Positions 14,477 to 29,358 of a stretch of 46,055 nt of DNA are shown here, piece after piece (positions within the stretch are counted from its first letter, which is position 1; each line of letters begins with the position of its first letter). The DNA comes from Verrucomicrobiota bacterium (GTDB lineage Bacteria; Verrucomicrobiota; Verrucomicrobiia; Opitutales; Opitutaceae). The notes under the pieces were generated by a model. The model was not told the DNA's origin, searched no databases, and was given only the letters and a program-made list of their open reading frames with translations. The translations under genes and the position numbers were made by a program. The stretch spans positions 1 to 46,055 of the forward strand of contig CANIWJ010000016.1 in assembly GCA_947471035.1 (NCBI GenBank), in the 5' to 3' direction.

Positions 14477-15613
14477 TTAGGCGATTAGCCCGTGGCCCGG
14501 GCGGAAGCGACGGACGGGACGCGGACCGGAGACGTCGAAAAGCACGGGGTGGGCGAATTTCTTCACATGGGCCCAGAACTCGGCTTCGGTTATGCCGATG
14601 TAGCGGCAGAAAGAGGCGAGGTATTCAGGGGCGCAGGCCTCGTCGTAGTTGTCCGCGTAGGGTATGCCCTCTTCCCGGGTGATCGTGCCGGCGCGGATGA
14701 GCTCGTTGGCGGCCTCGGTGCCGCGCGAAAACCCCAGTTTGTAGTATTTCAGGAGCATGTTCACCACGATCCAGTCCTCGTCGATCATGCTGGTGCCAAA
14801 GAGATCGCCGGTGGCCTCCGGTCCTGCGGGCCGGTGGGTCAAACCGTGGGCGATGGCCAGGGAGGAGTTGTTCGGCATCGACCAGTCCTCCCAAGCGGGC
14901 CCTAGAAAAACGGTCTGGACGCGGGCGCGGCGCAGCGACTCGCGCGAAGGAAATTTGTAAGGCGAAAGCCGCCGGTCGGTGCCCGCCACCTCGGTAAACC
15001 AGGAGAGGTCGCCGCCGGCGAGGGTGTTGGAATTGACCAGATTCTGGCCGTCCCAAATCGAAGAGCCCAGCGTGCCCATGTCGCCCACCTGCAGGGCGGG
15101 ATTTTCGCCCCAAAGAATGAGGGGAATCTTGCGTTCGATCGCAATCTGCGGGACGCCCGAAAACAGCGCCATTTCCGTAGCCTTGCACCAGTTGGCGAAG
15201 CGAAAGAAAGCGGCGCGCACCAACTCCTTGGATAGACGCGGTGCAGGGCCCAAAACCAAAGTGTCAAAGCCCAGTGAAACCAAATTCGCGAGATTGGCGG
15301 CTCCGATATGCGACAAATGGCGCGGGGGATAGGCGACGGAGACCAGCAAAGGCCGCAGACCAAGCTTGTCGCGGACCCAAAGCGCTTGACGGGTGGAATC
15401 TTTTCCACCGGAGACACCGACAATGCAATTGTGACGACGCTCCCGGTTGGTGCGGGTCTTTTCCTTTACGATCGCGGTGAGTTCATGGAAGCGGGCGAGG
15501 TAGTTAACATCGCGAGTCCGAGAGGTAAATTCGCACGCCGGACAGACCCCGTCGGCGTTAAAACGTCCGTTGGGCCGGGTGTTGGGCGTCAGACATCGGC
15601 GGCAATAAATCAT
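14477..15613 (-). CDS. N-acetyl sugar amidotransferase (WbpG/PseA family), intact PP-loop
   Basis: 378 aa. It has paired zinc-knuckle Cys at 4, 7, 24 and 27, then the PP-loop ATP-binding motif SGGKDS at residues 68-73 in CIVGVSGGKDSTRQALWVRD. Further family blocks include LILWGENPALQ and FLGPAWEDW. The enzyme activates the acetamido carbonyl with ATP and, with ammonia from HisH/HisF, forms the acetamidino group found on pseudaminic acid derivatives of Campylobacter flagellin (PseA) or on Pseudomonas O-antigen (WbpG). It starts at an ATGA overlap with the upstream methyltransferase gene. The exact sugar substrate is inferred from the pse genes of the cluster. Confidence 0.88.
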   Translation of the reverse strand: MIYCRRCLTPNTRPNGRFNADGVCPACEFTSRTRDVNYLARFHELTAIVKEKTRTNRERRHNCIVGVSGGKDSTRQALWVRDKLGLRPLLVSVAYPPRHLSHIGAANLANLVSLGFDTLVLGPAPRLSKELVRAAFFRFANWCKATEMALFSGVPQIAIERKIPLILWGENPALQVGDMGTLGSSIWDGQNLVNSNTLAGGDLSWFTEVAGTDRRLSPYKFPSRESLRRARVQTVFLGPAWEDWSMPNNSSLAIAHGLTHRPAGPEATGDLFGTSMIDEDWIVVNMLLKYYKLGFSRGTEAANELIRAGTITREEGIPYADNYDEACAPEYLASFCRYIGITEAEFWAHVKKFAHPVLFDVSGPRPVRRFRPGHGLIA

Positions 15614-16536
15614 GATTTAATCCCAGCAGTTACGATCTTCGACGCCATCACCGCGTGTTGCGTCCTAAGTAGCGGGATGCCTCGTAATATCGGATACGCC
15701 ATGCCCGTAAGCGGGGAAAAACAAACATCGGCCTCCCGAACCAAAGGCGTGTTTGTTAACGGACAACGAAACGCGAGCGCAGGCGAAACCGCCGAGGTCG
15801 GATTCTTTTCCACGATCACGACACCGCTAGGGTTCAATGGGTTAGTGGTGTAAGGCAACAAGCGACATTCCTTCACCTGCGCCCCAATTCCGCGAAATGT
15901 ATCGGCCAGCCCACGGACGTATCCGTGCTGCCGCATGCGTGCCTGCGCTTCACTACTACCGAGTTCATAGATGGGTTCGCACAAAACCACTGCGCGTCGG
16001 GCAACGCGAAGAAGCTCGCGCAGTGCGTCAGTTTCGCGCCCCCCGTTTGGCTCCAAGGAATGGGAGGTATACACGACATCCACACTATCATCAGCCAGCG
16101 GGATTGAGAAAAGGTCTCCCACGAAAACCTCCGCCTTGATGCCCTCTTCTTGAAGCCAATCGCGGGCCACGCTGCAACGCGACCAACTTAAATCAAAACC
16201 CAGCACGGTGGCAGGAGCAGGTGACAATAGACGCGAGACGGTGGAAAGCGTGGTGGCCTCGCCGACGCCCACCTCAAGCAAACTTCCGCCAGCGGGGAAC
16301 AAAGGACGCAAAACGTCCGCCAGCTGACTACACCAGCGAAGATTGTCCGCGCGTGTTTCGCGCACCACCGCCGTATAGCTTCCGGCCTGCAGGTCATAAG
16401 CGATCAAGGTGGCGTCTGAGGTGTTTTGTGCGGTGCCGAGGACTGCCCGGGCATGAGCCATGGCATTCTCCCCGCGTGCGTAGGCTGCGCGCATGCCGAT
16501 GATCAAAGGGCCCAATACATCCGGGGTAAGGTTCAT
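15610..16536 (-). CDS. SAM-dependent methyltransferase with C-terminal Trm112-like segment
   Basis: 308 aa. Motif I is LLEVGVGEATTLSTVSRLL near residues 85-103, followed by an acidic strand end (VLGFDLSW) and the post-motif DDSVDVVYTSHSLEPNGG. This is the class I methyltransferase pattern (Methyltransf_11/25). The C-terminal ~50 residues (FRCPLTNTPLVREADVCFSP, then YPILRGIPLL) resemble a Trm112/zinc-ribbon-like domain. Substrate unknown; the setting points to the flagellar glycan or its precursor. It overlaps the next gene by ATGA. Its GC content is somewhat below that of its neighbours. Confidence 0.75.
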   Translation of the reverse strand: MNLTPDVLGPLIIGMRAAYARGENAMAHARAVLGTAQNTSDATLIAYDLQAGSYTAVVRETRADNLRWCSQLADVLRPLFPAGGSLLEVGVGEATTLSTVSRLLSPAPATVLGFDLSWSRCSVARDWLQEEGIKAEVFVGDLFSIPLADDSVDVVYTSHSLEPNGGRETDALRELLRVARRAVVLCEPIYELGSSEAQARMRQHGYVRGLADTFRGIGAQVKECRLLPYTTNPLNPSGVVIVEKNPTSAVSPALAFRCPLTNTPLVREADVCFSPLTGMAYPILRGIPLLRTQHAVMASKIVTAGIKS

Positions 16537-16577: not shown

Positions 16578-17807
16578 TCAGGGCTCGACGTGGAATTGGA
16601 TGGACGCGTTGACCTCGCGGGCGCGGGCCTCGGCCTCGGCGCGGGTGGGCGCGGTGACGATAAACACGCCAGCGCGATCAGCGTGGCAACGGATGACGGG
16701 CAGGGTGTCGCCGGGACGTCGCCAAATCTCCAGTTTATGCAGCCAGGGTTTGCCCTCCACCCGCTCCAGGCCGGTGATCGCCCGCAGCCGTCCGGGCGGC
16801 GGAAAAAAATACTGGTTGATCACGGCGTGGTCGCGGGTCGGAACAAGCGCGGCCGGATCGACCGGACGGCCCATGGCGCGGAGTATCGCGACCCGAATAA
16901 TGTCCACCCCGGTGCCGAGCGGGATGAGCGTCGCCGAAAAATCCCCGCCGCTCAGGCGCAAAGCGACCTCTATAACGGCGGGCCCGTCGGGACCGATGAC
17001 GATGTCGCCCTTGATGACGCCGTTGCGCACGCCGAGGGCGCGGGCGCAGGCCGAGATCAAATCCTCGACCGCGGCGCGCTGGGCCGGGGTGCAAGCGGTG
17101 GGAACGAAACCGCCGTTTTCAATGATGTTAGGGGCAAAGGTCGCGAGGTGCTCGTAGTTGCGGTCGGCCCAACCCGGAGTGTGGACGACTCCGTCGATCA
17201 CAAGGGATTCGGTGCTGAGCTGGGGGCCGGGAGTGAAGGCTTCGACGATCAGCCGGCCGCACAGCGACTCGCGCAGCGAGGCGGCGTGAAGCGCGGCGAG
17301 ATCGCACCCTTCGGTCAACAAATACACCCCGCGCGCGCCGGAGCGATCCACGGGCTTCAAGACGAGGGGAAACCCGCGTTCGGAGACCACGGTCTGGAGC
17401 TCTTCCAGCGAGGTGACGGCGCGAAACCAAGGCACCGGGATGCCATGCGCACGGAAATGCTCCTTCATGCGGAGCTTGTCGGTGGCGATCATGGCAGCCT
17501 CCAAGGGGATGGAAGGCAACCCGAGGTGAAGGGCGAGTTCGGCGCCGATCTGCGGAATATCGGTTCCCTGGACCAAGACGCCGCCGATGCGCTTGCCCGA
17601 AGCTTGGAACCGGTCGGCGAACGCCTTGAGCGCGGGAACGTCGCGCGTGCTCACCACGGCGTGGGCGTCGGCGTGGGCGAAGCCGGGCGAGGCGGGGTTG
17701 GCATCCACCGTCACGACCGGGATGCCCAGCGCGCGCGCGGCGTGAATGCTGCAAAGCTGATCGGCGCTGGCACCGAGCAACAAAAGGTAATCGCCGGGAT
17801 CGGACAT
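16578..17807 (-). CDS. ATP-grasp ligase
   Basis: 409 aa. The N-terminal pre-ATP-grasp Rossmann domain begins YLLLLGASADQLCSIHAARA. The ATP-grasp core shows DKLRMKEHFRAHGIPVPWFR, FPLVLKPVDRSGARGVYLL and the metal-binding end VIEVALRLSGGDF. The C-terminal domain (~330-409) is like that of carboxylate-amine ligases. The family makes an acyl-phosphate from a carboxylic acid with ATP and joins it to an amine or other nucleophile. Beside an SDR and a DXS-like enzyme it may attach an unusual acyl group to an amino sugar (inference). It lies 36 bases after the SDR gene. Confidence 0.8.
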   Translation of the reverse strand: MSDPGDYLLLLGASADQLCSIHAARALGIPVVTVDANPASPGFAHADAHAVVSTRDVPALKAFADRFQASGKRIGGVLVQGTDIPQIGAELALHLGLPSIPLEAAMIATDKLRMKEHFRAHGIPVPWFRAVTSLEELQTVVSERGFPLVLKPVDRSGARGVYLLTEGCDLAALHAASLRESLCGRLIVEAFTPGPQLSTESLVIDGVVHTPGWADRNYEHLATFAPNIIENGGFVPTACTPAQRAAVEDLISACARALGVRNGVIKGDIVIGPDGPAVIEVALRLSGGDFSATLIPLGTGVDIIRVAILRAMGRPVDPAALVPTRDHAVINQYFFPPPGRLRAITGLERVEGKPWLHKLEIWRRPGDTLPVIRCHADRAGVFIVTAPTRAEAEARAREVNASIQFHVEP

Positions 17808-17843
17808 GTTTAGGGGTAAATCGGTTACTGGAGAAAAGCCGGG

Positions 17844-18611
17844 TCAGCCGAGATACGCGCCGCCGCTCACGCTGATCACCTGGCCGGTGATGTAGCTTTG
17901 CTCTTCGGAGCAAAGCAGCAGACAGGCGGCGAGCACGTCGCCGGTCTGGCCGGGTTTTTTCAGCAAGGTGAGGTCGATGACGGCCTTTCCGGCCGGGGAG
18001 TCGAACTCGTCCGCAGTCTGGTCGGTGCGGATGAGGCCCGGCGCGACGGCGTTGACGATGATGTTGTGGGGGGCGCCGTAGCGGGCCACCACCTTGGTGA
18101 GGCTATTCAGACCGGCCTTGGAGACGGCGTAATGAACGGTTTTAGGCCCGTGATACTGGCCGGCCACGGAGGATATGTTTACGATACGCCCGCCGCCCTG
18201 GCGTTTCATATAAGGAAACACCTCCTGGGAAGCGATGAACGGGCCCTTGAGATTAACGCCGAGCACGCGGTCCCAGTCCTCATCGGTCAGCTCCTCGAAA
18301 AAGCAGCGCTGGTTGATGCCGGCGTTGTTGATCAAAATGTCGATGCGCCCGAATTTTTCGACCGTGGCGGCGAAGAGCGCGCGAACCTCGGCGCGATTGA
18401 CCACATCGGCCCGCATGCAACCGGCGCGACCGCCGGCGGCCTCGATCTCGGCCGCCACCTCGGCGGCAGCCTGCGCCGCTCCGACGTAGCAAAAAAACAC
18501 CGCCGCACCCTCCTTGGCGAAACCCAGAGCAAGCGCGCGGCCGATGCCGCGCGAGCCTCCGGTGATGACGGCTACCTTGCCCGCAAGTCTGCCCGTGGAA
18601 GAAGTGTTCAT
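17844..18611 (-). CDS. Short-chain dehydrogenase/reductase (FabG/PtmA-like)
   Basis: 255 aa from the ATG at 18611, which overlaps the stop of the preceding gene by ATGA; the frame is open farther upstream but that part is out-of-frame shadow of the DXS-like gene. Classic SDR: cofactor motif TGGSRGIG (~18-25), NNAG (~96-99), catalytic Ser in NISSVAG (~148), YAVSK with Tyr161/Lys165, and the C-terminal ITGQVISVSGGAYL. It reduces a ketone or oxidises an alcohol with NAD(P)H. Related reductases (for example PtmA) occur in flagellar glycan loci. Here it is sandwiched between a DXS-like carboligase and an ATP-grasp ligase, which suggests it acts on their product or substrate. Confidence 0.88.
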   Translation of the reverse strand: MNTSSTGRLAGKVAVITGGSRGIGRALALGFAKEGAAVFFCYVGAAQAAAEVAAEIEAAGGRAGCMRADVVNRAEVRALFAATVEKFGRIDILINNAGINQRCFFEELTDEDWDRVLGVNLKGPFIASQEVFPYMKRQGGGRIVNISSVAGQYHGPKTVHYAVSKAGLNSLTKVVARYGAPHNIIVNAVAPGLIRTDQTADEFDSPAGKAVIDLTLLKKPGQTGDVLAACLLLCSEEQSYITGQVISVSGGAYLG

Positions 18612-20383
18612 AAAGTATTCAGAAACGCGGACGACCGGCTCTTCAAGCGCCCGTAGATGGAGGGAACGTCCAAGCCCGCCTCCAGGGAGCAATCCGCGTT
18701 GCTGCCGGGCTGCACAAACATGTCCGGCACGCCGGCGCGAAAAACGGGAACGAGCACATCGTGATCGTGCAGGATTTCCAGCACGGCCGAACCGAAACCG
18801 CCCGGCAGATTGGATTCCTCCAGCGTGATCAGCCGGCGTTTGGAGCGCGCTTGGGCGAGAATCGCGTCGGCGGGCAAAGGCTTTAAGCGGCGCACCGCAA
18901 CCACGCCGTAGGCCGGGCCGCCCTCGGCCAGAATCTTTTCGCGGAGAGCGAGCGCCTTGGCCGCCTGATTGGGCACACAGAGAATCGCGCCCTGGTCGCC
19001 TTCGGCCACGGTGGTGGTGTCGCCCGGTTCGGAAGGAGCGGCCGCGGCGGCCGCCGAGAGCGGGTCGTAGGGATGCAGCAAGATGCACGGCCCCTTGGGG
19101 GCGGCAGCGCGCACGCGGAGGGCGTTGCGCATGTCTGCGGGGTTTTCAGGATAATAAATCTGGAGCCGGGGAATGGCGCGCAGATAGGGAATGTCGTAGA
19201 TGCCGTGGTGGGTGGCGGAATCGAAGCCGGCGAAACTGGAGCGCACCCCGAGCAAGGTGATCGGCAAATCCATGTAGGCGGCGTCGTGGATAAGTTGATC
19301 ATAGGCCCGCTGGAGGAAGGTGGTTTGCACGCAAACGATCGGATGCTTACCTTGGAGCGCCAGACCGCAGGCCAGGCCGACCGCGTGCTGTTCGGCCATT
19401 CCCACGTCGATCACCCGCGTGGGATAGCGGGCGGTGAGTTTGTCCAGATAGGAGGCATAGGGCGTGGCCGGGGTGATGAGCACCATTTCGGGATGCAGCG
19501 CCATGAGTTCGAGCAGCTCCTCGGCCGCGACCGAAGCGAAGGTGGTGCCCATCACGGTGGGCGAGGCGCCCTTGCCGGTGGCGACGTCGAAGGGCATGGA
19601 GAAGTGCATCTTGTAGGGATGGGCCGAGGCGCAGGACAGGCCGCGTCCCTTCTCCGTCTTGGCATGCACGATCCAAGGGCCGGGCGCGCCCTTGGCCTCG
19701 CACAGAGCTGCGGTGAGCGCGGCGAGATCGTGGCCATCGGGCACCGCTAGATAGTTGAAACCGAGGGCGCGGAAAAAGCCGCCGGCCTGCGCCTGCCAAT
19801 CCGGCCGGGTGCACATGTGGTGGATGCCACCCACGTTCGGCGCGATGGCCATGCCGTTGTCGTTGAGCACGACCACCAGATTGCGGCCGTTTACGGGCAG
19901 GAAATTCAAGGCCTCGAACGCGAGTCCTTCGACTAGCGAACCGTCCCCGATCACGGCCACGGTGTGGGCGGCGGGCGAGGGGGTTTCCTGCCAGGCCAGA
20001 CCGGCCGCGAGGGACAAGGACGTGCCCGCATGCGAGGCCTCGATCACGTCGGCCTCGTGCTCGGCGCGCGACAGAAACCGGCTCATGCCGCGATAGGTGT
20101 TGAGGGTGGCGAAGGCGTCGATACGACCAGTGAGCAGCTTGTGGGTGTAGCCCTGGTGGCCGGTGTCGAAAACAACCCGGTCAGAGGGCACATTAAAAAC
20201 ATGATGGATCGCGAGGGTGATCTCGATCGTGCCGAGGTTGGCCCCGATGTGGCCGCCGGTGCGGGCCACCGAATCAAGCAGGAAGGCGCGGATATTCCCG
20301 GCGAGGTCATTCAGACCGGCGGTGTCCAGCTGCCGCACGCCGGCGGCCAGTTGTTGGGGAAAGGTGCTGAGGGATGGGTTCAT
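18608..20383 (-). CDS. 1-deoxy-D-xylulose-5-phosphate synthase-like / transketolase-family enzyme
   Basis: 591 aa from the ATG at 20383 (ATGA overlap with the upstream methyltransferase gene). It is a full-length TPP enzyme similar to DXS (~620 aa). Visible features: TGHQGYTHKLLTGR, TPP/Mg motif GDGSLVEGLAFEALN...LNDN (~146-176), the catalytic AEQH of the Pyr domain, FLQRAYDQLIHDAAYMDLP, THHGIYD and the transketolase C domain. DXS joins a two-carbon unit from pyruvate to an aldehyde. A copy inside a glycan operon, coupled to an SDR and an ATP-grasp ligase, is unlikely to be the housekeeping isoprenoid enzyme. A carboligation to make a branched or extended sugar or a hydroxy-acyl precursor is my inference. 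Confidence 0.85.
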   Translation of the reverse strand: MNPSLSTFPQQLAAGVRQLDTAGLNDLAGNIRAFLLDSVARTGGHIGANLGTIEITLAIHHVFNVPSDRVVFDTGHQGYTHKLLTGRIDAFATLNTYRGMSRFLSRAEHEADVIEASHAGTSLSLAAGLAWQETPSPAAHTVAVIGDGSLVEGLAFEALNFLPVNGRNLVVVLNDNGMAIAPNVGGIHHMCTRPDWQAQAGGFFRALGFNYLAVPDGHDLAALTAALCEAKGAPGPWIVHAKTEKGRGLSCASAHPYKMHFSMPFDVATGKGASPTVMGTTFASVAAEELLELMALHPEMVLITPATPYASYLDKLTARYPTRVIDVGMAEQHAVGLACGLALQGKHPIVCVQTTFLQRAYDQLIHDAAYMDLPITLLGVRSSFAGFDSATHHGIYDIPYLRAIPRLQIYYPENPADMRNALRVRAAAPKGPCILLHPYDPLSAAAAAAPSEPGDTTTVAEGDQGAILCVPNQAAKALALREKILAEGGPAYGVVAVRRLKPLPADAILAQARSKRRLITLEESNLPGGFGSAVLEILHDHDVLVPVFRAGVPDMFVQPGSNADCSLEAGLDVPSIYGRLKSRSSAFLNTL

Positions 20384-21525
20384 AAGAAATCGGTGTAGTG
20401 GTAAATCCGGGTGAAGCCGTGTTGGCCCGCTTCCTGGCGAATCTCGTCCTGGTAGCCGTCCGAACAGATGACGACGGGCGTGTTCGCGGTCCGCGCTCCG
20501 AAAGCGCCGGGAGCGCAAACCGGCAAGCCGTGGACCTCGGAAAGGTAGCGGTGCAGAAACTTATCCACCAGACAGGAAACCAGGGAGGCGTCCAAACCGC
20601 CGATTTTCACCAACGCGTCGAAGATGCGCCCGCCGCCCCAGAAAACCGCCGGAGTCCCGGCCAGATCGCGCCGCATCGCCTCCACCCGACAGCGCAGAAC
20701 CGCGCGATTTTCCGCCAGCGCCATACGGTAGTGCTCCATGAAGCGGCGCGCGGTCTCCGCCTCGCGGTTCTCGTTGTCCGTGGAGCGCGCCGAGACCGGA
20801 GCGGGCGTCACCACGACTTCGATTTCGCTGTAGGGATTCACGGTGTTCTCAAACAGCACGGCCAGTCCGGCCTCCGCGAGCATCAGCCGGAAACTTCCCG
20901 GCGAGAAATGGAACGTGTGGGTGTCGATAAACAGCTCCACAAAACCGTCGGACGGAAAAACCGAGATGTTAGGCACGGCCAAAAACGCCCGCCCGCCCGG
21001 CTTCAGGGCCCGCCGCAATGCGGTCAAAAAAACACGGGCGCTGCGCAGGTGCTCCAAAGTGTGGGCGCAGTAAACGAGATCAAAACGCGCTTCGCCGAGA
21101 TCGAGCTCCTCCACTCTGCGTGCGATCGTGGTCAGTCGCGGGTCGGCGGGATATGCGGAGGTGACGGCGGCGTCCGACTCGACCGCCAGCACGGTGCGCA
21201 TCCCGGGCACGGCCAGCAGTCGGGCGAGCATGGAGCCGCGATTGGAGCCGATATCCGCCGAGTCCCGGGCCGTCGCCAATCCGGCGTGTTCCTCGAGCAG
21301 ACGCGAGTGCGCGTCCACGATGATGTCCTTGGTGTACTTGATACTAGCCCGGTCCGCGTCGCACGACATGCTGGGCGCGGGATGGGATTCATAGGCGACG
21401 GTGGAGACGCTCTGAATCAATCCGCAACGCTCGCAGGTAAACACCTGCATGCCGCGCCGGGTGCCGACCGGATGGTAGGGGTTGCGCAGAGGCGTCTGGC
21501 AATGATCGCAGCTTGGGGAAGGCAT
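20380..21525 (-). CDS. SAM-dependent methyltransferase with N-terminal zinc-binding motif (C-methyltransferase type)
   Basis: 381 aa. It starts with CDHCQTPL and CERCGLIQS, four Cys as in the zinc domain of sugar C-methyltransferases (Methyltransf_13-like). The class I methyltransferase core follows (DIGSNRGSMLARLLAVPG, LVYCAHTLEHL, ALKPGGRAFLAVPNI). The C-terminal ~130 residues include FWGGGRIFDALV, LVSCLVDKFLHRY and TPVVICSDGYQDEIR, a second Rossmann-like segment typical of Methyltransf_14. Such enzymes methylate carbon atoms of deoxy-keto sugars. It overlaps the DXS-like gene by ATGA, so it may act in the same step series. Confidence 0.78.
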   Translation of the reverse strand: MPSPSCDHCQTPLRNPYHPVGTRRGMQVFTCERCGLIQSVSTVAYESHPAPSMSCDADRASIKYTKDIIVDAHSRLLEEHAGLATARDSADIGSNRGSMLARLLAVPGMRTVLAVESDAAVTSAYPADPRLTTIARRVEELDLGEARFDLVYCAHTLEHLRSARVFLTALRRALKPGGRAFLAVPNISVFPSDGFVELFIDTHTFHFSPGSFRLMLAEAGLAVLFENTVNPYSEIEVVVTPAPVSARSTDNENREAETARRFMEHYRMALAENRAVLRCRVEAMRRDLAGTPAVFWGGGRIFDALVKIGGLDASLVSCLVDKFLHRYLSEVHGLPVCAPGAFGARTANTPVVICSDGYQDEIRQEAGQHGFTRIYHYTDFL

Positions 21526-22414: not shown

Positions 22415-23473
22415 CTATGGCGAGACGCGAACGGCGGCGGGCGTTAAAACACTTTCCGCGAGGCACCGCGCGATCCGCATCGCCCCTTGGCCGTCGATCA
22501 CACGCTCCAATTCAAACTGCGGGACGCGGATGCGCCCGAGCCAGGCGCGAACCTCGGCGGCGATCTGTTCCGGCCCGACCTCGCCGTGTAATCCGAGGCT
22601 GGTCGCCTGGCCGGCCTCGACCAGCGATTGCGCGGCCGAGGCGTGCCCTTCGGTCAGACAAAGATGCACCGCCGGTACCCCGATCGCGGCGAGTTCGTAA
22701 GCGGTCATGCCAAAAGACGCCACCGCCAGATCCATCTCGCCCATGAGACCGGGCATATCCGTCACCGCGCGATGCAACACCGGAGCGAGTTTGGATTCAG
22801 CCAGAAACGCGGCAAGGGCCGCCTCGTGACAAAAGCCCCCGCCCAAAACAACCGCGACCTCCAGCTCGGCCGCGAGCGGTTCCAATCCGGCCAGGGCCTT
22901 GAGAGTCAGTCCGGCGGGGTCGCTGCCGCCCATGGCAACCAAGGTTCGCACCCGCCGCCCGTTCAACGCCCGGACCCGCCTGCGGACGCCGGAAAAGCCG
23001 GCGCGCAACACCAGCCAGTCCCAACCCACGAAGCGGCGTCCGCCAAACCCGACCCAATCCAGTCGCTCCACCTCGGACACGGGCGGGTAAAACGCCAGAT
23101 CGGCCGCCAACCGGCGCGGCGCTGGATCGTCGATCACCGCCACCAGCACGCCTAGATCCCGCACCGCCTCCAGCGCGGCCGGGGAAAGTCCGGTGCGCAC
23201 GTCGCAAACCAGCGCGTCCGCCCCGGTGCGCTTTACCAAGGACAACAACCACTCCCCTTCGTCGCTCTCCGCATCGGTAGCGCGATGGCAAACATGACCG
23301 GCGGCGGCGACCGCGCGGGCGGCGGCATCATCGCCCAGCACGGCGAACTCGGGTCGCAGATCACCCGCGCGCACCAGCGCCTCGGCCAGGGCCAGACACC
23401 GAACGAGGTGCCCGTGGCCCAGGGTCGGCGAAGCGTCGCAGCGGATGAGCACCCGTTTTTCCATCGAAATCAT
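22415..23473 (-). CDS. pseG: UDP-2,4-diacetamido-2,4,6-trideoxy-beta-L-altropyranose hydrolase
   Basis: 352 aa. GT-B fold with the PseG hallmark near the start: VLIRCDASPTLGHGHLVRCL (Gly/His-rich loop). Later come TLVAMGGSDPAGLTLKAL and ASFGMTAYELAAIGVPAVHL. PseG removes UDP from the diacetamido-altrose intermediate in CMP-pseudaminic acid synthesis. Its presence, rather than a NeuC/LegG epimerase, points to the pseudaminic (not legionaminic) branch. The start overlaps the pseF stop by ATGA, which supports 23473 over the in-frame Met three codons later. Confidence 0.88.
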   Translation of the reverse strand: MISMEKRVLIRCDASPTLGHGHLVRCLALAEALVRAGDLRPEFAVLGDDAAARAVAAAGHVCHRATDAESDEGEWLLSLVKRTGADALVCDVRTGLSPAALEAVRDLGVLVAVIDDPAPRRLAADLAFYPPVSEVERLDWVGFGGRRFVGWDWLVLRAGFSGVRRRVRALNGRRVRTLVAMGGSDPAGLTLKALAGLEPLAAELEVAVVLGGGFCHEAALAAFLAESKLAPVLHRAVTDMPGLMGEMDLAVASFGMTAYELAAIGVPAVHLCLTEGHASAAQSLVEAGQATSLGLHGEVGPEQIAAEVRAWLGRIRVPQFELERVIDGQGAMRIARCLAESVLTPAAVRVSP

Positions 23474-24261
23474 TCCTTGGTGCCGGACTCGGCGGGCTGC
23501 CAGATTTTGGCGTGGTTGGCCGAGCTGATATGGTGTGCGTTGCGCGAGGCTAGCTCGGGATGGGCGGAAAGAAAATCGAGCACATCCTGCATGCCAAAAA
23601 CGGAACCAGGGCGGTAAAGGGCGGCGTAAAGTTCCGCCACAACTTCGAAGTCCGCCTCGTAGTCCACCGTCCAGCGCAGGTGGGAATAATCGTGTTCCGA
23701 CTTGTGCACCCCGAGCCGGAAACGCTCCGGCTGCCGCCAGATGAAGGGCGTCACGTGCTCGCGATCAGTCGGCGCGACCGCCTCGCGCCATGCCGTCTCC
23801 AAGGCCGAGAAGCGTAAAAATTCGGCGTCCAGCCCGGCCGGAAACCGGCCTCCGGTCAGTTTGGCCGCGCCCGCTCCGGCGGCGACGCCGATATGATCCA
23901 GCCCGCCGGCTTCACCGGCGGCAATCACCGCGTCGATCAGCGCGGGGTCGGCCAGCGGGCAATCGGCGGTGATGCGCACCACCGGATCCGCGCGATGCAA
24001 AAGGGCGGTCTGGTAGAAACGGTCGAGCACGTCGCGCTCGCTGCCCGCGAAGCACGCGATGCCCTCCGCTGCACAGAAGGCGCGCAGGGGCTCGTCGCCG
24101 GGCAGATCGGACGTGGCCACAACCACTTTTCCCACCTTCTTGGCCGCGCCGACGCGGCGCACGATGTGGCCGAGCATCGGATAACCAAGCAGAGGACGAA
24201 GTACTTTGCCCGGCAGACGGGACGAACCCAGGCGGGCTTGAATGATGGCGACGGTGGGCAT
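23470..24261 (-). CDS. pseF: CMP-nonulosonate (pseudaminate) cytidylyltransferase, SpsF/PseF family
   Basis: 263 aa. Nucleotidyltransferase signature AIIQARLGSSRLPGKVL at the N-terminus, then VVVATSDLPGDEPL, ERDVLDRFYQTA and VRITADCPLADPALID. These are features of the SpsF/COG1861 cytidylyltransferases. The enzyme activates the nonulosonic acid with CTP to give the CMP-sugar donor. It is flanked by pseI (18 bases upstream) and pseG (4-base overlap). The exact sugar is inferred from those neighbours. Confidence 0.85.
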   Translation of the reverse strand: MPTVAIIQARLGSSRLPGKVLRPLLGYPMLGHIVRRVGAAKKVGKVVVATSDLPGDEPLRAFCAAEGIACFAGSERDVLDRFYQTALLHRADPVVRITADCPLADPALIDAVIAAGEAGGLDHIGVAAGAGAAKLTGGRFPAGLDAEFLRFSALETAWREAVAPTDREHVTPFIWRQPERFRLGVHKSEHDYSHLRWTVDYEADFEVVAELYAALYRPGSVFGMQDVLDFLSAHPELASRNAHHISSANHAKIWQPAESGTKE

Positions 24262-24279: not shown

Positions 24280-25131
24280 TCAGGCGCGCCAGGTTTTGCG
24301 AACATGCAAAAACGGCCGCAATCCGTCGGAGGGATCCGCCCGCCATTCACGGTCGGGCAACTCGGCCGGCGTGGGCGCCTTGGTGCCGTCGCCGTCGGCC
24401 AACTCGGCGGTCTTGATGTCGGAGATCACCGCGCCGATTTGCCCCGGCAGCCAGCAATGCCCGGTCGCGGCCTCGGCCCCCTGCCCTTCCAGATCGAGGT
24501 GAAACTCGATCGCGGTCGCGCCCCAGCGATGGATCGCCCGCTGCAAAACCACCGGGGAAACCGTGTGGTCGGACCAGCCGACCGCGCACCCGAAGGCATC
24601 GCGGATGGTCTGGATCGCGGCCAGGTTGCAATCCGACGGCGGACAGGGATAGGCCGAGACGCAGTGCAAAAGGGTGAGGTCGCGGCAACCCGCCGCGCGC
24701 AGCACGCCCACCGCCTGCTGTATCTCTTCCAGCGTGGCCATGCCGGTGGAAAGAATCACGGGTTTGCCGGTTCGGGCGCAGGCCTCCAAGAGCGGAGACC
24801 AGAGCAACTCGTAAGAGGCGATTTTGTAGAAATCGACGTAGGGCAGGAGCTCCTCCACCGCCTCCAAGTAAAAGGGTGTGCAGCCAAAGGCGATTTGGTG
24901 TTCGCGGCAGGTGTCGCGCAGGGCGGGCAGGAACTCCAGCGGCAGTTCCCACTCTTTGCGCCGCCGGTGTTTTTCGCTTTGGGCCAGAATTTCGGGGGCG
25001 AAAAGCTCCTCGATCTTGAACAACTGGAATTTCACCGCGTCGCACCCGGCGGCCGCGGCGGCCCGAATGAACTCCCGCGCACGGGCGAGATCTTGGTTAT
25101 GGTTACTGGAAACTTCGGCGATAAAACGCAT
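24280..25131 (-). CDS. pseI: Nonulosonic acid synthase (PseI/NeuB family) lacking the SAF domain
   Basis: 283 aa against the usual ~340-370. The TIM-barrel condensing domain is clear: FIAEVSSNHNQDLARAREFI, AVKFQLFKIEELFAPEI, YKIASYELLW, VILSTGMATLEEI, LLHCVSAYPCP, VGWSDHTVS. The normal EKHFTLD block reads IEFHLDLEG. After the barrel the protein ends (REWRADPSDGLRPFLHVRK) with no antifreeze-like SAF domain, which in PseI/NeuB contributes to the active site of the partner subunit. It condenses a 6-deoxy-hexosamine with phosphoenolpyruvate. The stop is followed directly by pseF, so this is not a frameshift truncation within the gene. Confidence 0.85.
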   Translation of the reverse strand: MRFIAEVSSNHNQDLARAREFIRAAAAAGCDAVKFQLFKIEELFAPEILAQSEKHRRRKEWELPLEFLPALRDTCREHQIAFGCTPFYLEAVEELLPYVDFYKIASYELLWSPLLEACARTGKPVILSTGMATLEEIQQAVGVLRAAGCRDLTLLHCVSAYPCPPSDCNLAAIQTIRDAFGCAVGWSDHTVSPVVLQRAIHRWGATAIEFHLDLEGQGAEAATGHCWLPGQIGAVISDIKTAELADGDGTKAPTPAELPDREWRADPSDGLRPFLHVRKTWRA

Positions 25132-25223: not shown

Positions 25224-27182
25224 ATGTTGAATCTCTTCACGGTCTTTCACCTCAACCTGATGTATTCCTCGATCGAGGTGGCGGAGCGTCCCAAGGTGAT
25301 CCGGCAGGCCTACACGCCCTTGCTGGATATGATCGAACACGACGGTCTCCGGCTCGGCCTGGAGTTGCCTGCCCTTACCCTGGAACTGATCGCGGAGCTC
25401 GATCCGGAATGGGTGCGGCGGCTGGGAGCCTTGTGGGCGGCGGGCCGCTGCGAGGTGGTGGGCGCTGGCTACACGCAGATGATCGGACCGCTTTGGCCGT
25501 CCGCGCTGAACCTTAAAAACTACACCTACGGAATGGACGTGTATGAGCGTCTCCTCGGCAAACGCCCCGAGCTGGTGCTGTTCAACGAACAGGCCTACAG
25601 CAGCGCGCTTCTGCCCGCCTGCGCGGCGGCGGGTTTCAAGGGCGTGATCATGGAGTGGGACAACCCCGCGAGCCTGCACCCGACTTGGCGCAACGAGTGG
25701 CGCTACCATCCGCACTACGTGCAACACGGCCACGTCCGGCTGCCCTTGCTCTGGAACGCTTCGATCTGCTTTCAAAAGGTGCAGCGCTACGTCCACGAGG
25801 AAATCGCCCAGGCCGAATTGCTCGATTACCTCGTGCAACACCAGGCGCCCGCCGAACGTTTTCTCTGCCTCTACGGCGGCGACGCCGAGGTCTTCGACTA
25901 CCGCCCGGGCCGCTACCAAAACGAGGCCGTGCTCCAGGGCGGGGAGTGGCGCCGCATGGCCGAGGGTTTCAAGGCGGCGTGCGCCCTGCCCGACACCCGC
26001 ATGGTTTTGCCCTCCGAAGTCCTGGGCGACCTGAGCCACCCCATGGCCGGACAGAACCTGCGACTGGAAACCGCCGCCTGTCCCGTGCCGGTGAAAAAAC
26101 AGGAAAAATACAACATCAACCGCTGGGCCGTGACCGGCCGCAACGACCTCGACGCCAATACGCGCTGCCTGCGGATTTTTCACGCGCTGGAGAAAAAAGG
26201 ACTCCCCTGCGCGGCCGACCAATGGCGCGAACTGCTGTTTCTCTGCTCGAGCGATTTCCGGACCCACTGCAGGCCGGCGCGCTGGGCCGATTTTGAAAAC
26301 CGTCTGGCCGCGCTTGAGACCGCGCTCGGCCTGCCGGCCAAGCGGGAAAATTTGATCACTGCGCCCGCCTCCGGTCCGCGTCTTTCCGTGCGCCAGGAAC
26401 ACCGCTTCCTGATCGCAGAACAAGCCGGCGCGCGCCTCGTCCTGAACTGCCACCGGGGTCTGGCGGTGCAATCCTGCCACTACGATGCGGTCTCGCCGCG
26501 CTCCCTTTTCGGCACGGTGGACCACGGCTACTTCAGCCGGATTGATCTCTCGGCGGACTTCTACACCGGCAACGTCGTTGCCGAACTTCCCGCCCGTCCG
26601 AAAGTCACCGACCTCGGCCGCGTGGCCCCGGAAATCGGATCCGACGCCGAATGCCCCCTGGTGGTCACGGGCCAAATCGAAACCCCGCTCGGCCCGGTGC
26701 GCAAACAACTGCGCTGGCAACCCGACGAACGTTGGTTGGAAACCCGCTACGACATCCAATGGACGGAGCCCTTCATGGGTTCGCTGCGGCTCGGTCACCT
26801 CTTGCTCAATCCGGCGGCCTACGACCGAGACACCCTTTTTCACAACATGCACGGACACGACGGCGGTCCCGCCGCCCTCCGCCTGGCCGGACAGGGCAAC
26901 TTCGACCATGGCCGAGCCATCAATCCCCTGATTTCCGCCGCCCACGGTTTCGGCCTGCCCGAGGGCAAAACCTGCCTCGGCGACGATTCCATCCGCATAA
27001 ACGTCACGGTGGACACCGACCTGGCCCTGCCCCTCGGTCAAATCGCCTACTACGAGACCGGAACGGAGACCTTCACCCGTCTGTGTTTCTCGTTGAGCGA
27101 GATGGACGAGACCCGCCTGCTGGGCCCGCAGGCCCGCCCCGGCGGTTGGCAATTTGCGGTCAGGTATCACGTCGTTAATTAG
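25224..27182 (+). CDS. Glycoside hydrolase family 57-like protein
   Basis: 652 aa on the plus strand, opposite to all neighbours, with a good Shine-Dalgarno GGAG at 25215-25218. GH57-like features: RCEVVGAGYTQMIGPLWP (residues ~75-92), LVLFNEQAYSSALLP with Glu122 as possible nucleophile, GVIMEWDNP, and LYGGDAEVFDYRPGRY with Asp220 as possible acid/base. The usual N-terminal HxHQP motif is replaced by FHLNLMY, so substrate handling differs. The C-terminal ~300 residues look like the beta-rich domain of GH57/alpha-mannosidase-like enzymes. No signal peptide, so cytoplasmic. It splits pseC from pseI. Role unknown; perhaps trimming or transglycosylation of a glycan or storage glucan. Confidence 0.75.
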   Translation: MLNLFTVFHLNLMYSSIEVAERPKVIRQAYTPLLDMIEHDGLRLGLELPALTLELIAELDPEWVRRLGALWAAGRCEVVGAGYTQMIGPLWPSALNLKNYTYGMDVYERLLGKRPELVLFNEQAYSSALLPACAAAGFKGVIMEWDNPASLHPTWRNEWRYHPHYVQHGHVRLPLLWNASICFQKVQRYVHEEIAQAELLDYLVQHQAPAERFLCLYGGDAEVFDYRPGRYQNEAVLQGGEWRRMAEGFKAACALPDTRMVLPSEVLGDLSHPMAGQNLRLETAACPVPVKKQEKYNINRWAVTGRNDLDANTRCLRIFHALEKKGLPCAADQWRELLFLCSSDFRTHCRPARWADFENRLAALETALGLPAKRENLITAPASGPRLSVRQEHRFLIAEQAGARLVLNCHRGLAVQSCHYDAVSPRSLFGTVDHGYFSRIDLSADFYTGNVVAELPARPKVTDLGRVAPEIGSDAECPLVVTGQIETPLGPVRKQLRWQPDERWLETRYDIQWTEPFMGSLRLGHLLLNPAAYDRDTLFHNMHGHDGGPAALRLAGQGNFDHGRAINPLISAAHGFGLPEGKTCLGDDSIRINVTVDTDLALPLGQIAYYETGTETFTRLCFSLSEMDETRLLGPQARPGGWQFAVRYHVVN

Positions 27183-27206: not shown

Positions 27207-28406
27207 TCACCGGACCAGGGATCGCACCGCCGCGATCACCTGGCCGACGTCTTGATCCGTCATGGCGGGGAAAAGCGGCAGACTCAGCGCCCTCGCGTAA
27301 AACGCCTCCGCCCTTGGGCATTTGCCGGGTGCGTAACCAAAGGTCTGGCGATACCAAGGCTGCAAATAGACCGGGATATAAAGCACCTGCGAGCCCACCC
27401 CGGCGGCCCGAAGCTCGGCCATAACTTCGGTGCGCGTCCGGCCCAAAACGGCAAAATCAATTTGGGCGGTATAAAGATGCCAGGACGCCGTCGCGGCGTC
27501 GGCGGCGTTTCTCAGGCCCGGGCGGGTGAACCAGGGTAGATCGGCGAAAGCGGTGTTGTAAGCGGCCACGATCTCGCGGCGACGCGCCACCATCGCATCC
27601 AACCGGTTGAGCTGCGAAAGCCCGAGCGCGCATTGCAGGTCGGTCAGGCGGTAGTTCCAGCCCAGTTCCTGCATTTCGTAAAACCAGGGGCCGCGCTCGG
27701 CCAGCAGGGGATTATCGTCGGTCGGCGGCGTCAAACGGGCCGCCTCGCGGACGATGCCATGCGACCGGAGCGTACGGGCGAGTTCGGCCCACTCCGCCCG
27801 ATCCGTAACCAACATGCCGCCTTCGCCGGTGGTGAGGGTTTTCACCGGGTGAAAACTGAAAGTCGTGATGTCCGCCCAGGGATTTCCACCCAAGGACCAG
27901 GCGCGGCCCGGCGCGACCTCGGTGTGAAAAGCACCGCCAATAGCGTGACAAGCATCGTCGATCACCACCGCCCCGTGAGCCCGCGCAACCCGCGCGATTT
28001 CGGGCATATCCGCCGCCTGCCCGGCGTAATCCACCGCCACCACCGCGCGGGTGTCGGCCTGCCAGGCGTCGGACAGGGCGGCGGGCGATAGCGTGTAGGA
28101 GACGGGGTCGATATCGGCAAAATCAGGCGTCGCGCCGACGTAAGCGGCCGCGTTCGCCGAGGCCAGAAACGTGATCGGTGAAGTCACCACGCGATCTCCG
28201 GCGCCAACTCCGGCCACCCGCAGCGCGAGGTGAAGGGCGGCGGTGGCGCTGTTGACCGCGACCGCGTATTTCGCGCCCACCCGCTCGGCAAAGCGCCGCT
28301 CAAAGGCTTCGATCTGCGGCCCTTGGGTCAAAAAATCCGACCGCAAAACCGCCGTGACGGCGGCAATGTCGTCCTCCGTGATGGTCTGGCGTCCGTAGGG
28401 AAGCAT
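27207..28406 (-). CDS. pseC: UDP-4-amino-4,6-dideoxy-N-acetyl-beta-L-altrosamine transaminase
   Basis: 399 aa, normal for the DegT/DnrJ/EryC1/StrS PLP aminotransferases. Start LPYGRQTITEDDIAAVTAVL is PseC-like. PLP contacts: VNSATAALHLAL, VDYAGQAADM, VIDDACHAIGG. The Schiff-base Lys189 sits in TFSFHPVKTLTTGEGGM. The late NYRLTDLQCALGLSQL and the substrate loop near YIPVYLQPWY are as in PseC. It aminates the 4-keto sugar made by PseB. It lies on the other side of the GH57 gene from pseI and ends 24 bases from the end of that convergent gene. Confidence 0.92.
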   Translation of the reverse strand: MLPYGRQTITEDDIAAVTAVLRSDFLTQGPQIEAFERRFAERVGAKYAVAVNSATAALHLALRVAGVGAGDRVVTSPITFLASANAAAYVGATPDFADIDPVSYTLSPAALSDAWQADTRAVVAVDYAGQAADMPEIARVARAHGAVVIDDACHAIGGAFHTEVAPGRAWSLGGNPWADITTFSFHPVKTLTTGEGGMLVTDRAEWAELARTLRSHGIVREAARLTPPTDDNPLLAERGPWFYEMQELGWNYRLTDLQCALGLSQLNRLDAMVARRREIVAAYNTAFADLPWFTRPGLRNAADAATASWHLYTAQIDFAVLGRTRTEVMAELRAAGVGSQVLYIPVYLQPWYRQTFGYAPGKCPRAEAFYARALSLPLFPAMTDQDVGQVIAAVRSLVR

Positions 28407-28425: not shown

Positions 28426-29358
28426 TTAAGCGGTAGGAGAAGGGCAAGGCCGGCCGTACACCGTGCTCTCCCGACCCACCCCGAGGGTGTGCATGTGTTG
28501 ATACAAAGACCGTTTTATGTGCGACAGCCCGGCGGTGGCCAGGCCGGTCTCGAACAACATGCGTTTACGGTGAATGCTGCGGCCCACCTGGTCGTTGCCC
28601 GCGTAGTTGTCCCCCATGAGAAGGAACATCTCCACCGGGAACGTGGATTCACCCAGCACCACATCGAAGCCGCTTCGTTTCATGACGTTTTCCAACGACT
28701 TTGAATTGAAGTAGTTGATATGATGCGGCGGACACAGCCACCACGGCGTAGGCGGCTGCAGTTGCTGGTAGGCCAGGGTCTGGAAGGGGTTGTACTCGTT
28801 TGGCACCGTCACGCAGAGAATGCCATGCGGGGCCAACAGACTCTGGCAAAGCCGAAGGGTCTCGGCCGGATCCGGCAGATGCTCCAGCACGAGACTCAGG
28901 TGGATGACATCGAAGCGGCCGAGCTTGGGCGCGAGATCCCGGTCGAAAAACTCGGACAGCACCTCCAGCCCCAAGGACCGTGAATACTCGCAGGCCTGGC
29001 GCGAGGGCTCTATGCCCAACACGTCCCAGCCGCGCTCCTTGCCTCGCAACAAAAACAATCCGGGACCCGAGCCGATGTCCAACAAACGCCGGGAACCGGC
29101 GGGAACCATCTGCTCGAAACTGTCATACCGATCATTGTAAACGAGATCCCACCAAGGCCGGTCTTCTTTGTAGCGATCAATGTAAACGGGCTCCGTGGTG
29201 GCGTAAAACTCCTCCGCGTAGATTTTTTCCAACTGCTCGATGGTCGGCAAGGGCGTGATATGCGCGAAACCGCAGGCCTCGCAGTCGATGATATCGTAAC
29301 CATTCGCGGAGCTTAGGACGGGGCCTTTATGTTGTTCGCAAACAGGGGTGGTGGACAT
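28426..29358 (-). CDS. SAM-dependent methyltransferase with N-terminal Cys-rich start
   Basis: 310 aa. N-terminal CEQHKGPVLS...DCEACGF resembles the short zinc-type leader of Methyltransf_23 proteins in glycan clusters. Motif I is LLDIGSGPGLFLLRGKERGW. Later blocks are FDVIHLSLVLEHLPDPAETL and LLAPHGILCVTVPNEYNPF. The reading frame lies between pseB and pseC, so it most likely methylates a nonulosonate or glycan hydroxyl, but it could act after assembly. No acetyltransferase features are present, so it does not fill the PseH gap. Confidence 0.78.
   Translation of the reverse strand: MSTTPVCEQHKGPVLSSANGYDIIDCEACGFAHITPLPTIEQLEKIYAEEFYATTEPVYIDRYKEDRPWWDLVYNDRYDSFEQMVPAGSRRLLDIGSGPGLFLLRGKERGWDVLGIEPSRQACEYSRSLGLEVLSEFFDRDLAPKLGRFDVIHLSLVLEHLPDPAETLRLCQSLLAPHGILCVTVPNEYNPFQTLAYQQLQPPTPWWLCPPHHINYFNSKSLENVMKRSGFDVVLGESTFPVEMFLLMGDNYAGNDQVGRSIHRKRMLFETGLATAGLSHIKRSLYQHMHTLGVGRESTVYGRPCPSPTA

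What the first reader, a model, noticed from the sequence alone, without database searches (positions are those of the whole stretch)
16578..20383. DXS-like, SDR and ATP-grasp cassette inside a glycan operon
A full-length DXS/transketolase-type enzyme with intact TPP and AEQH motifs is translationally coupled to an SDR and followed by an ATP-grasp ligase. A C-methyltransferase-like gene precedes it, also by ATGA. DXS-type carboligation plus reduction plus acyl ligation could make a branched or acylated sugar. I know of no described flagellar pathway using this trio.
Basis: partly seen in the sequence, partly recalled or inferred. Interest (0 to 1): 0.72.

Follow-up and report, generated by a model that had tools for sequence, protein, structure and literature searches.

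The report
Repurposed DXS in flagellin-sugar cassette
Next to its flagellum genes this bacterium carries a relative of a vitamin/isoprenoid enzyme (DXS) whose normal substrate pocket is altered and which, in quite unrelated microbes, keeps company with a reductase and a ligase in flagellin-sugar gene clusters where other thiamine enzymes can take its place, so it probably helps build an unusual side group on the sugar that coats flagella.

Summary
In detail: DXS-like, SDR and ATP-grasp genes lie at 16578-20383, with ATGA overlaps at MTase/DXS and DXS/SDR, inside a pseudaminate-type flagellar glycan locus. The genome has a separate canonical dxs and dxr, so this is not the housekeeping gene.

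The gene belongs to a DXS-derived clade (21 sequences, one branch, SH-aLRT 99). It keeps catalytic residues but has R99->N, Y392->Q and R478->Y at the glyceraldehyde-3-phosphate site in 21 of 21. SDR and ATP-grasp homologues lie within 10 kb in 17 of 17 loci not found through the ATP-grasp, against 0 of 24 ordinary dxs loci. In Shewanella the same slot holds this enzyme, an acetolactate-synthase-like enzyme (S. oneidensis sfmABCDE, needed for flagellin glycosylation; Bubendorfer 2013) or a split transketolase.

Best reading: an sfm-type cassette whose exchangeable thiamine carboligase helps make a polyhydroxy acid that the ATP-grasp puts on the Pse precursor's free amine. Substrates are unproven. 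The milder MR-1 ATP-grasp mutant argues against the simplest order, and lack of PseH is not specific: the sister species without the trio has none over cut-off either. New variant of a known kind.

The parts
18608..20383 (-). DXS-derived ThDP enzyme (591 aa); H45, H76, D147, N176, H260, E331, R359, R381, D388 and H392 correspond to conserved DXS residues; GAP-site positions changed (Q353 = Ec Y392, Y439 = Ec R478, N at Ec R99)
17844..18611 (-). SDR reductase (255 aa), ATGA overlap with the DXS-like gene
16578..17807 (-). ATP-grasp ligase with L-amino-acid-ligase C-terminal domain (409 aa)
20380..21525 (-). SAM methyltransferase (Methyltransf_23) upstream, ATGA overlap with the DXS-like gene; homologue directly upstream of the DXS gene also in L042 and L051
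21537..22466 (-). sulfotransferase-like, also upstream of the cassette in L042 and L051 (3 of 21 loci with the window)
22415..23473 (-). divergent PseG-like (130.9 bits, cut-off 153.55)
23470..24261 (-). divergent PseF-like cytidylyltransferase (CTP_transf_3)
24280..25131 (-). short NeuB/PseI-like synthase without SAF match (283 aa), SfmA-like
25224..27182 (+). GH57-family-like protein, homologue within 10 kb of the DXS gene in 16 of 21 clade loci
27207..28406 (-). PseC aminotransferase (459.5 bits, cut-off 423.5); its product has a free 4-amine
   Evidence: product from pathway knowledge
28426..29358 (-). methyltransferase (MT29), homologue within 10 kb of the DXS gene in 18 of 21 clade loci
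29458..30489 (-). PseB dehydratase (512.1 bits, cut-off 407.75)
15610..16536 (-). methyltransferase downstream of the ATP-grasp gene
14477..15613 (-). WbuX/PseA-type N-acetyl sugar amidotransferase (237.4 bits, cut-off 203.2); followed by HisH 14471-13854 and a HisF-like gene 13864-13079
   Evidence: WbuX, HisH; the HisF name is from reading the translation, not from a family search

Best explanation
The trio is the core of an sfm-type flagellin-glycan cassette. PseB and PseC make UDP-4-amino-4,6-dideoxy-AltNAc with a free 4-amine. The DXS-derived ThDP enzyme decarboxylates a 2-oxo acid (most likely pyruvate) and transfers the C2 unit to an acceptor other than GAP, forming a ketol. The SDR reduces the keto group, neighbouring methyltransferases O-methylate the product, and the ATP-grasp ligase joins the resulting polyhydroxy carboxylic acid to the free amine, in place of acetylation by PseH. 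Divergent PseG, a short NeuB and PseF then turn the acylated sugar into a CMP-nonulosonate for flagellin. Shown: the genes, their linkage in several phyla, the altered acceptor site, and replacement of the ThDP enzyme at one locus. Inferred: substrates, products, order of steps and amide linkage.
For: A separate canonical dxs and dxr are in the genome. The clade is one branch, SH-aLRT 99, with R99->N, Y392->Q and R478->Y in 21 of 21, R420, D427 and H431 kept, and the 206-239 loop gone. In E. coli DXPS R420, R478 and Y392 form the GAP pocket and R478A has Km(GAP) 1400 uM (passages of PMC11019550). SDR plus ATP-grasp homologues are within 10 kb in 17 of 17 loci not found by ATP-grasp (14 within 1 kb) and 0 of 24 controls; NeuB-like is within 10 kb in 16 of all 21. 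In Shewanella the ThDP slot holds DXS-like, ALS-like or split transketolase among shared glycan genes. The DXS-type rows need one label change on the ATP-grasp tree (support 100) and on the SDR tree (86), 0 of 500 shuffles as low. Deletion of sfmA-D in S. oneidensis gives flagellin at the unmodified size; the glycan there is mono-N-acetyl Pse-like (274 Da) plus C9H16O7 with O-methyl variants. PseH: no match in this genome; 0 of 8 orthologue genomes, G234 and MR-1-like G558 over cut-off. The ATP-grasp's best solved relative is an L-amino acid ligase.
Against: In S. oneidensis the ATP-grasp deletion (sfmE) was milder than deletion of the ThDP enzyme, SDR or MTase: filaments and swimming stayed and the mass shift was smaller. 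If the ligase simply attached the acid made by the others, all should look alike. Missing PseH is not specific to trio genomes: near-sister G004, without the trio, has none over cut-off either (23.1 of 93.1 bits), and weak GNAT matches below cut-off occur in 8 of 8 orthologue genomes; this genome is 92.34% complete. SDR and ThDP types are not tightly matched: the DXS-type loci hold at least two separate SDR groups, and sister DXS rows L055 and L115 have different ones. No enzyme of this clade has, to my knowledge, been assayed. R420 is kept and the window protein passes the TIGR00204 cut-off by 9 bits. C9H16O7 also fits a glycosidic O-methyl-octose. The experiments concern the ALS-type variant.
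Confidence: 0.5

Rival explanations
1. The DXS-like enzyme builds a C-branched or chain-extended sugar unit (yersiniose/YerE-like chemistry, recalled) that is linked O-glycosidically to the nonulosonate, and the ATP-grasp enzyme adds a separate acyl or amino-acid group.
For: C9H16O7 fits an O-methyl-octose or a hydroxyethyl-branched heptose as well as a linear acid (formula, arithmetic mine). The milder sfmE phenotype fits a ligase that acts on a separate group. Some clade loci hold two or more ATP-grasp homologues (L046, L052, L053, L055).
Against: In S. oneidensis the Pse-like unit carries only one N-acetyl, leaving an amine for acylation. No separate nucleotide-sugar route beside the trio was recognised, but only matches to window genes plus two L043 proteins were sought in most loci.
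Confidence: 0.23
2. It is a second, pathway-dedicated DXP synthase that supplies DXP or 1-deoxy-xylulose as building block for the glycan.
For: Passes TIGR00204 (474.7 against 465.95); R420, D427, H431, H299 and H49 kept in 21 of 21.
Against: R478->Y, Y392->Q and R99->N in 21 of 21; R478A alone gives Km(GAP) 1400 uM in E. coli DXPS. ALS-like or transketolase enzymes occupy its slot, and neither would be expected to make DXP.
Confidence: 0.13
3. The ThDP enzyme only decarboxylates a 2-oxo acid, giving an aldehyde or acyl unit, or acts as a transketolase on a ketose donor, rather than performing a DXS-type acetyl transfer.
For: A split transketolase occupies the same slot in L117 and lies beside the DXS-like gene in G234. 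The 236 Da unit of S. oneidensis and the 176 Da unit implied by the 450.2 Da T. denticola glycan differ by C2H4O2, one ketol unit (arithmetic mine; T. denticola composition recalled, mass seen).
Against: The ALS-like alternative belongs to a family that normally uses pyruvate (recalled). The window protein scores far nearer DXS than transketolase profiles.
Confidence: 0.14

Closest known systems
S. oneidensis MR-1 sfmABCDE (SO_3261-SO_3265), flagellin modification operon
   Same: NeuB-like short synthase, ThDP enzyme, SDR, methyltransferase and ATP-grasp ligase in a flagellar Pse setting with PseB/PseC and, by the authors, without clear PseH, PseG, PseI or PseF orthologues. L121, whose five gene lengths match the published ones (290, 581 from an internal start, 255, 395, 412), also has GH57-like, MT29-like, MT401-like and MAF genes.
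   Different: The ThDP enzyme there is acetolactate-synthase-like (PF02776/PF00205/PF02775, below the ALS equivalog cut-offs), not DXS; its SDR and ATP-grasp lie on other branches. The window adds a sulfotransferase and WbuX/HisH/HisF genes.
[quoted passage not shown]
   Same: Domain order, ThDP site, catalytic His and Glu residues, R420/D427/H431.
   Different: 36.6% identical to E. coli DXS and 41% to the genome's own dxs; R99, Y392 and R478 replaced, loop 206-239 absent; glycan context.
PseH step of pseudaminic acid synthesis
   Same: Proposed to act on the same 4-amine of the PseC product.
   Different: PseH is a GNAT using acetyl-CoA (recalled); here an ATP-dependent carboxylate-amine ligase is proposed (inference).
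Treponema denticola 450.2 Da flagellar glycan
   Same: Pse-type unit with a large methoxylated polyhydroxy N-acyl group (structure recalled from Kurniyati 2017, which is not held; only the 450.2 Da mass was seen, in passages of PMC9481697).
   Different: Its acid-building genes were not examined here.

Membership tests
DXP synthase (DXS) | Family profile above curated cut-off | tested here: met
   TIGR00204 474.7 against 465.95
DXP synthase (DXS) | ThDP/catalytic residues (Ec H49, H80, D152, N181, H299, E370, D427, H431) | tested here: met
   21 of 21
DXP synthase (DXS) | GAP-pocket residues R420, R478, Y392 (and R99) | tested here: not met
   R420 kept; R478->Y, Y392->Q and R99->N in 21 of 21
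DXP synthase (DXS) | Makes DXP from pyruvate and D-GAP | not testable with these tools
   needs enzyme assay
sfm-type flagellin-modification cassette | NeuB-like short synthase + SDR + ATP-grasp, with methyltransferases, in a flagellar Pse locus | tested here: met
   window and 15 of the 20 other clade loci have a NeuB-like gene with SDR and ATP-grasp homologues within 10 kb; NeuB of the window and of L043 shows no SAF match; the window's flagellar genes were named from reading translations
sfm-type flagellin-modification cassette | ThDP enzyme of acetolactate-synthase type (SfmB) | tested here: not met
   window ThDP enzyme is DXS-type; ALS-like in L116, L118-L121
sfm-type flagellin-modification cassette | Flagellin carries 274 Da nonulosonate plus 236-264 Da moiety | not testable with these tools
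   needs mass spectrometry
Canonical pseudaminic acid pathway (PseB-C-H-G-I-F) | PseB and PseC | tested here: met
   512.1 and 459.5 bits, above cut-offs
Canonical pseudaminic acid pathway (PseB-C-H-G-I-F) | PseH acetyltransferase | tested here: not met
   no match at E<=0.001 in the genome; but sister G004 without the trio also has none over cut-off
Canonical pseudaminic acid pathway (PseB-C-H-G-I-F) | PseG, PseI and PseF above curated cut-offs | tested here: not met
   PseG 130.9/153.55, PseI 184.8/340.25, PseF 23.5/205.7; sister G004 passes for PseG and PseF, not for PseI (184.9)
L-amino acid ligase (ATP-grasp) | ATP-grasp plus LAL_C2 domain | tested here: met
   LAL_C2 72.4 bits against 29.4; best solved relative 3vot, 60.5 bits
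L-amino acid ligase (ATP-grasp) | Joins an acid and an amine at the cost of ATP | not testable with these tools
   needs assay

The most novel reading that the evidence does not exclude
Flagellin nonulosonates carry an N-acyl group built by a dedicated, exchangeable thiamine carboligase. The slot has been filled independently from three enzyme families (DXS, acetolactate synthase, split transketolase), beside an SDR and an ATP-grasp ligase. The DXS-derived clade has traded its GAP pocket for a new acceptor and spread across phyla, giving a C-C-bond-forming route to glycan diversity in place of the PseH acetylation step.
Probability: 0.42. Interest if true: 0.78.

Novelty: new variant of a known kind. 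Interest (0 to 1): 0.62.

Why it matters
It gives genetic handles on an unsolved structure, the 236-264 Da group on Shewanella flagellin, and predicts that thiamine-dependent C-C bond formation diversifies flagellar sugars. It also flags a recognisable set of DXS-like proteins (PYE or PYD in place of the PRG of YPRG in most members) of which the window protein passes the dxs annotation cut-off yet is probably not a DXP synthase.

Tried and rejected
Housekeeping dxs: rejected, because a second canonical dxs and dxr are present. Contaminating contig: unlikely although the assembly is rated 6.58% contaminated, because the regulator in the window is 97% identical to that of genome G004 and FliD, TPR and PseC in the same window are 92-97% identical to G004's. 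Vertical inheritance in the family: no orthologue of the DXS-like protein among 56 other genomes (E<=1e-60); the ATP-grasp in 1 of 120 family genomes, the window's own; the NeuB-like gene at best 41% identical elsewhere in 38 genomes. Plasmid searches gave only more distant proteins: 30 of 34 DXS records were listed, at 32-39% identity, and the best ATP-grasp was 42%. No AlphaFold model was made, since the tool gives no coordinates with which to test the pocket. Literature: one search returned no paper; one paper each, judged unrelated (50 from passages; 49 and 51 from listings only); two, one of them Bubendorfer 2013. The library is open-access only, so absence there is weak. The T. denticola structure paper is not held; its chemistry is recalled. 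L122 (G552) looks fragmentary at the ThDP position and was not classified. Near-copies L048-L050 and L113, plus L042 (SDR only a 141-aa frame) and L046 (ATP-grasp cut by the contig end), were left out of the SDR or ATP-grasp tree. The first linkage table used only longest non-overlapping frames, missed window genes and stopped with a script error; one search replaces it.
Full report
OBSERVATION. The three genes are real and in place: DXS-like 20383-18608, SDR 18611-17844, ATP-grasp 17807-16578, all on the - strand. The methyltransferase stop and DXS start overlap as ATGA, as do the DXS stop and SDR start; the ATP-grasp gene begins 36 bp after the SDR. The cassette lies in a pseudaminate-type locus: PseB and PseC pass their curated cut-offs (512.1 against 407.75; 459.5 against 423.5), while PseG (130.9 against 153.55), PseF (23.5 against 205.7) and the NeuB/PseI-like gene (184.8 against 340.25) do not. 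The NeuB-like protein shows no SAF match. The window's flagellar genes (FliD- and FliS-like and others) were named by reading translations.

NOT THE HOUSEKEEPING GENE. The genome has another dxs on contig C6, with 372.4 bits to PF13292; the window gene's best stretch scores 227.1 in the same search. The C6 gene has the canonical residues, is 98.5% identical to the dxs of G004 in the same genus, and dxr is present above its cut-off.

A DISTINCT CLADE. In 57 genomes (own included) hits at E<=1e-60 other than the window gene were 33-40% identical; those put in the tree fall with housekeeping dxs. Of 387 genomes of the phylum, seven including the window's own passed E<=1e-74 and one other (G234, 56%) is an orthologue (at most 3 candidates per genome were scored). 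A scan of genome contigs gave 39 loci: 15 at 44-55% identity (L042-L056) and 24 at 33-38% (L057-L080). The 15 are eight Shewanella, a Candidatus Anammoxibacter, an Omnitrophica, a MAG labelled Euryarchaeota, a Falkowbacteria, two Deltaproteobacteria and a Vampirovibrionales MAG. With the window, G234 and four more genomes of the Shewanella genus (L111, L113-L115), 21 sequences form one branch (SH-aLRT 99) on a quick tree of 49 rows. L056 has a long branch, so its place is unsure, and twelve of the 21 are Shewanella, so the rows are not independent.

ACCEPTOR SITE. On an alignment numbered by E. coli DXS (fetched), 21 of 21 clade members keep H49, H80, D152, N181, H299, E370, R398, R420, D427 and H431. 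All 21 have N for R99, Q for Y392 and Y for R478, and lack the 206-239 loop. The 24 dxs sequences that I chose as housekeeping reference (of the more than 50 found) have Y392 in 24, R478 as R in 21 and K in 3, R99 as R in 23 and K in 1. Four other short DXS-like proteins of the phylum (L037-L040) also lack the loop and vary at 392 and 478, with other residues, so losing this site is not unique to the clade. Passages of PMC11019550 name R420, R478 and Y392 as the GAP pocket and give Km(D-GAP) 1400 uM for R478A. I therefore do not file this as a DXP synthase, although it passes the TIGR00204 cut-off. It probably remains a ThDP carboligase with another acceptor (inference).

LINKAGE. Homologues (phmmer, 45 bits or more) of both SDR and ATP-grasp lie within 10 kb of the DXS-like gene in 21 of 21 loci, both within 1 kb in 18; exceptions are L054, L056 and G234. 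Four of these loci (L111, L113-L115) were found by the ATP-grasp itself, so the fair count is 17 of 17 within 10 kb and 14 within 1 kb, the window included. NeuB-like is within 10 kb in 16, GH57-like in 16, MT29 methyltransferase in 18 and PseC in 15 of 21; several loci end early. Of the 24 ordinary dxs loci L057-L080 from the same scan (a set that only partly overlaps the reference sequences above; several have short flanks), 2 have an SDR, none an ATP-grasp and none a Pse gene. SDRs are a very large superfamily, so the ATP-grasp and Pse links weigh more. In L042 and L051 the order sulfotransferase-MTase-DXS-SDR-ATP-grasp equals that of the window; in L042 the SDR shows only as a 141-aa frame.

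INTERCHANGEABLE ThDP ENZYMES. Of 97 genomes of the Shewanella genus searched, 19 have the ATP-grasp. By the gene in the ThDP slot: DXS-like in 12, acetolactate-synthase-like in 5 (L116, L118-L121), split transketolase in 1 (L117), one fragmentary (L122). The families rest on Pfam for three ALS-like proteins and both L117 halves and on NCBIfam for all five ALS-like proteins, below the ALS equivalog cut-offs, and both L117 halves; the DXS-like ones on similarity to the window protein. The surroundings are shared: PseF-like, GH57-like, short NeuB, where the stretch reaches PseB/PseC, and in several a MAF-like gene. G234 has the DXS-like gene and a split transketolase in one locus. On SDR and ATP-grasp trees of 22 rows each, the DXS-type rows need one label change (support 86 and 100), 0 of 500 shuffles as low; near-copies help this and long branches meet in the SDR tree. 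Against a tight SDR match: DXS-type loci fall in at least two SDR groups, and the sister DXS rows L055 and L115 carry different ones. The single transketolase-type ATP-grasp groups inside the ALS-type ones.

KNOWN COUNTERPART. S. oneidensis MR-1 sfmABCDE encodes NeuB-like, 'ilvB' ThDP enzyme, 3-oxoacyl-ACP-reductase-like SDR, MTase and ATP-grasp proteins of 290, 581, 255, 395 and 412 aa (PMC3765264: passages; abstract; sections 11-13). L121 has the same five lengths (581 from an internal start), so it is MR-1 or a near relative. Deletion of sfmA-D gave flagellins at the unmodified size and no motility on soft agar; the sfmC mutant kept a visible flagellum and some swimming; sfmE deletion was milder. 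The glycan is a mono-N-acetyl pseudaminate-like 274 Da unit plus C9H16O7, C10H18O7 or C11H20O7 with O-methyl groups. The authors say clear PseH, PseG, PseI and PseF orthologues are lacking. As an amide-linked group C9H16O7 corresponds to an acid C9H18O8 with one unsaturation, a linear polyhydroxy acid; an O-methyl-octose glycoside has the same formula. This arithmetic is mine.

MECHANISM. Proposed: PseB/PseC product with free amine; ThDP carboligation and SDR reduction build a hydroxy acid; MTases methylate; the ATP-grasp forms the amide in place of PseH; PseG-like, short NeuB and PseF-like enzymes finish. PseH has no match in the window's genome, and none over cut-off in any of 8 orthologue genomes (weak matches in all eight, best 53.1 of 93.1 bits), in G234 or in G558. 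But sister G004, without the trio, has none over cut-off either (23.1 bits), so this absence is only weak support. Against the simplest order is the mild sfmE phenotype. All chemistry is inferred.

RECENT SWAP. In the near-sister genome G004 the same flagellar locus (FliD 97%, TPR 92%, PseC 92% identical) continues instead with PseF and PseG above their cut-offs, a PIG-L deacetylase, a weak formyltransferase-like domain fused to PseG, and a NeuB with SAF domain. So the glycan block differs between close species, consistent with horizontal transfer; the ATP-grasp was found in 1 of 120 family genomes, the window's own.

VERDICT. Real and not housekeeping. The system is a new variant of the sfm-type flagellin-modification cassette. 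The new points are the DXS-derived clade with an altered GAP site and the three-way replacement of the thiamine enzyme at one locus; I found no report of them in the searches named, which cover open-access papers only.

Noticed in passing
window 11880-13082 (-): A second WbuX-like protein (named by reading) whose PP-loop region reads VPVRGSPES where the first has VGVSGGKDS, next to HisF- and HisH-like genes; no Pfam match. Possibly a non-catalytic partner.
   Followed up: no
window 25224-27182 (+): GH57-family-like protein on the opposite strand inside the Pse locus, homologue within 10 kb of the DXS-like gene in 16 of 21 clade loci and present in the ALS- and transketolase-type Shewanella loci; its role here is unknown.
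   Followed up: partly
L148 145-6943 (genome G004): Sister species carries a different glycan block at the same flagellar locus: PseF, PIG-L deacetylase, PseG fused to a weak formyltransferase-like domain, NeuB with SAF domain; no PseH over cut-off in that genome.
   Followed up: partly
L082 1263-2495, L115 8823-10046, L117 6496-7674: CsaB-like polysaccharide pyruvyl transferases lie near the ThDP genes in some variants.
   Followed up: no
L081 10851-11783 (G234): FabH-like ketoacyl-ACP synthase (below curated cut-offs) in the Pse locus, hinting at an ACP-linked acyl step in that variant.
   Followed up: no
L081 12980-14773 and L043 2984-4681: Cytidylyltransferase-PseG fusion in G234; the long PseF-like protein of Shewanella may be a similar fusion, which could explain loci without a separate PseG.
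   Followed up: no
L037-L041: Other short DXS-like proteins of the phylum (34-37% identical); the four aligned (L037-L040) have yet other acceptor-site residues, so further DXS paralogues of unknown function may exist.
   Followed up: no
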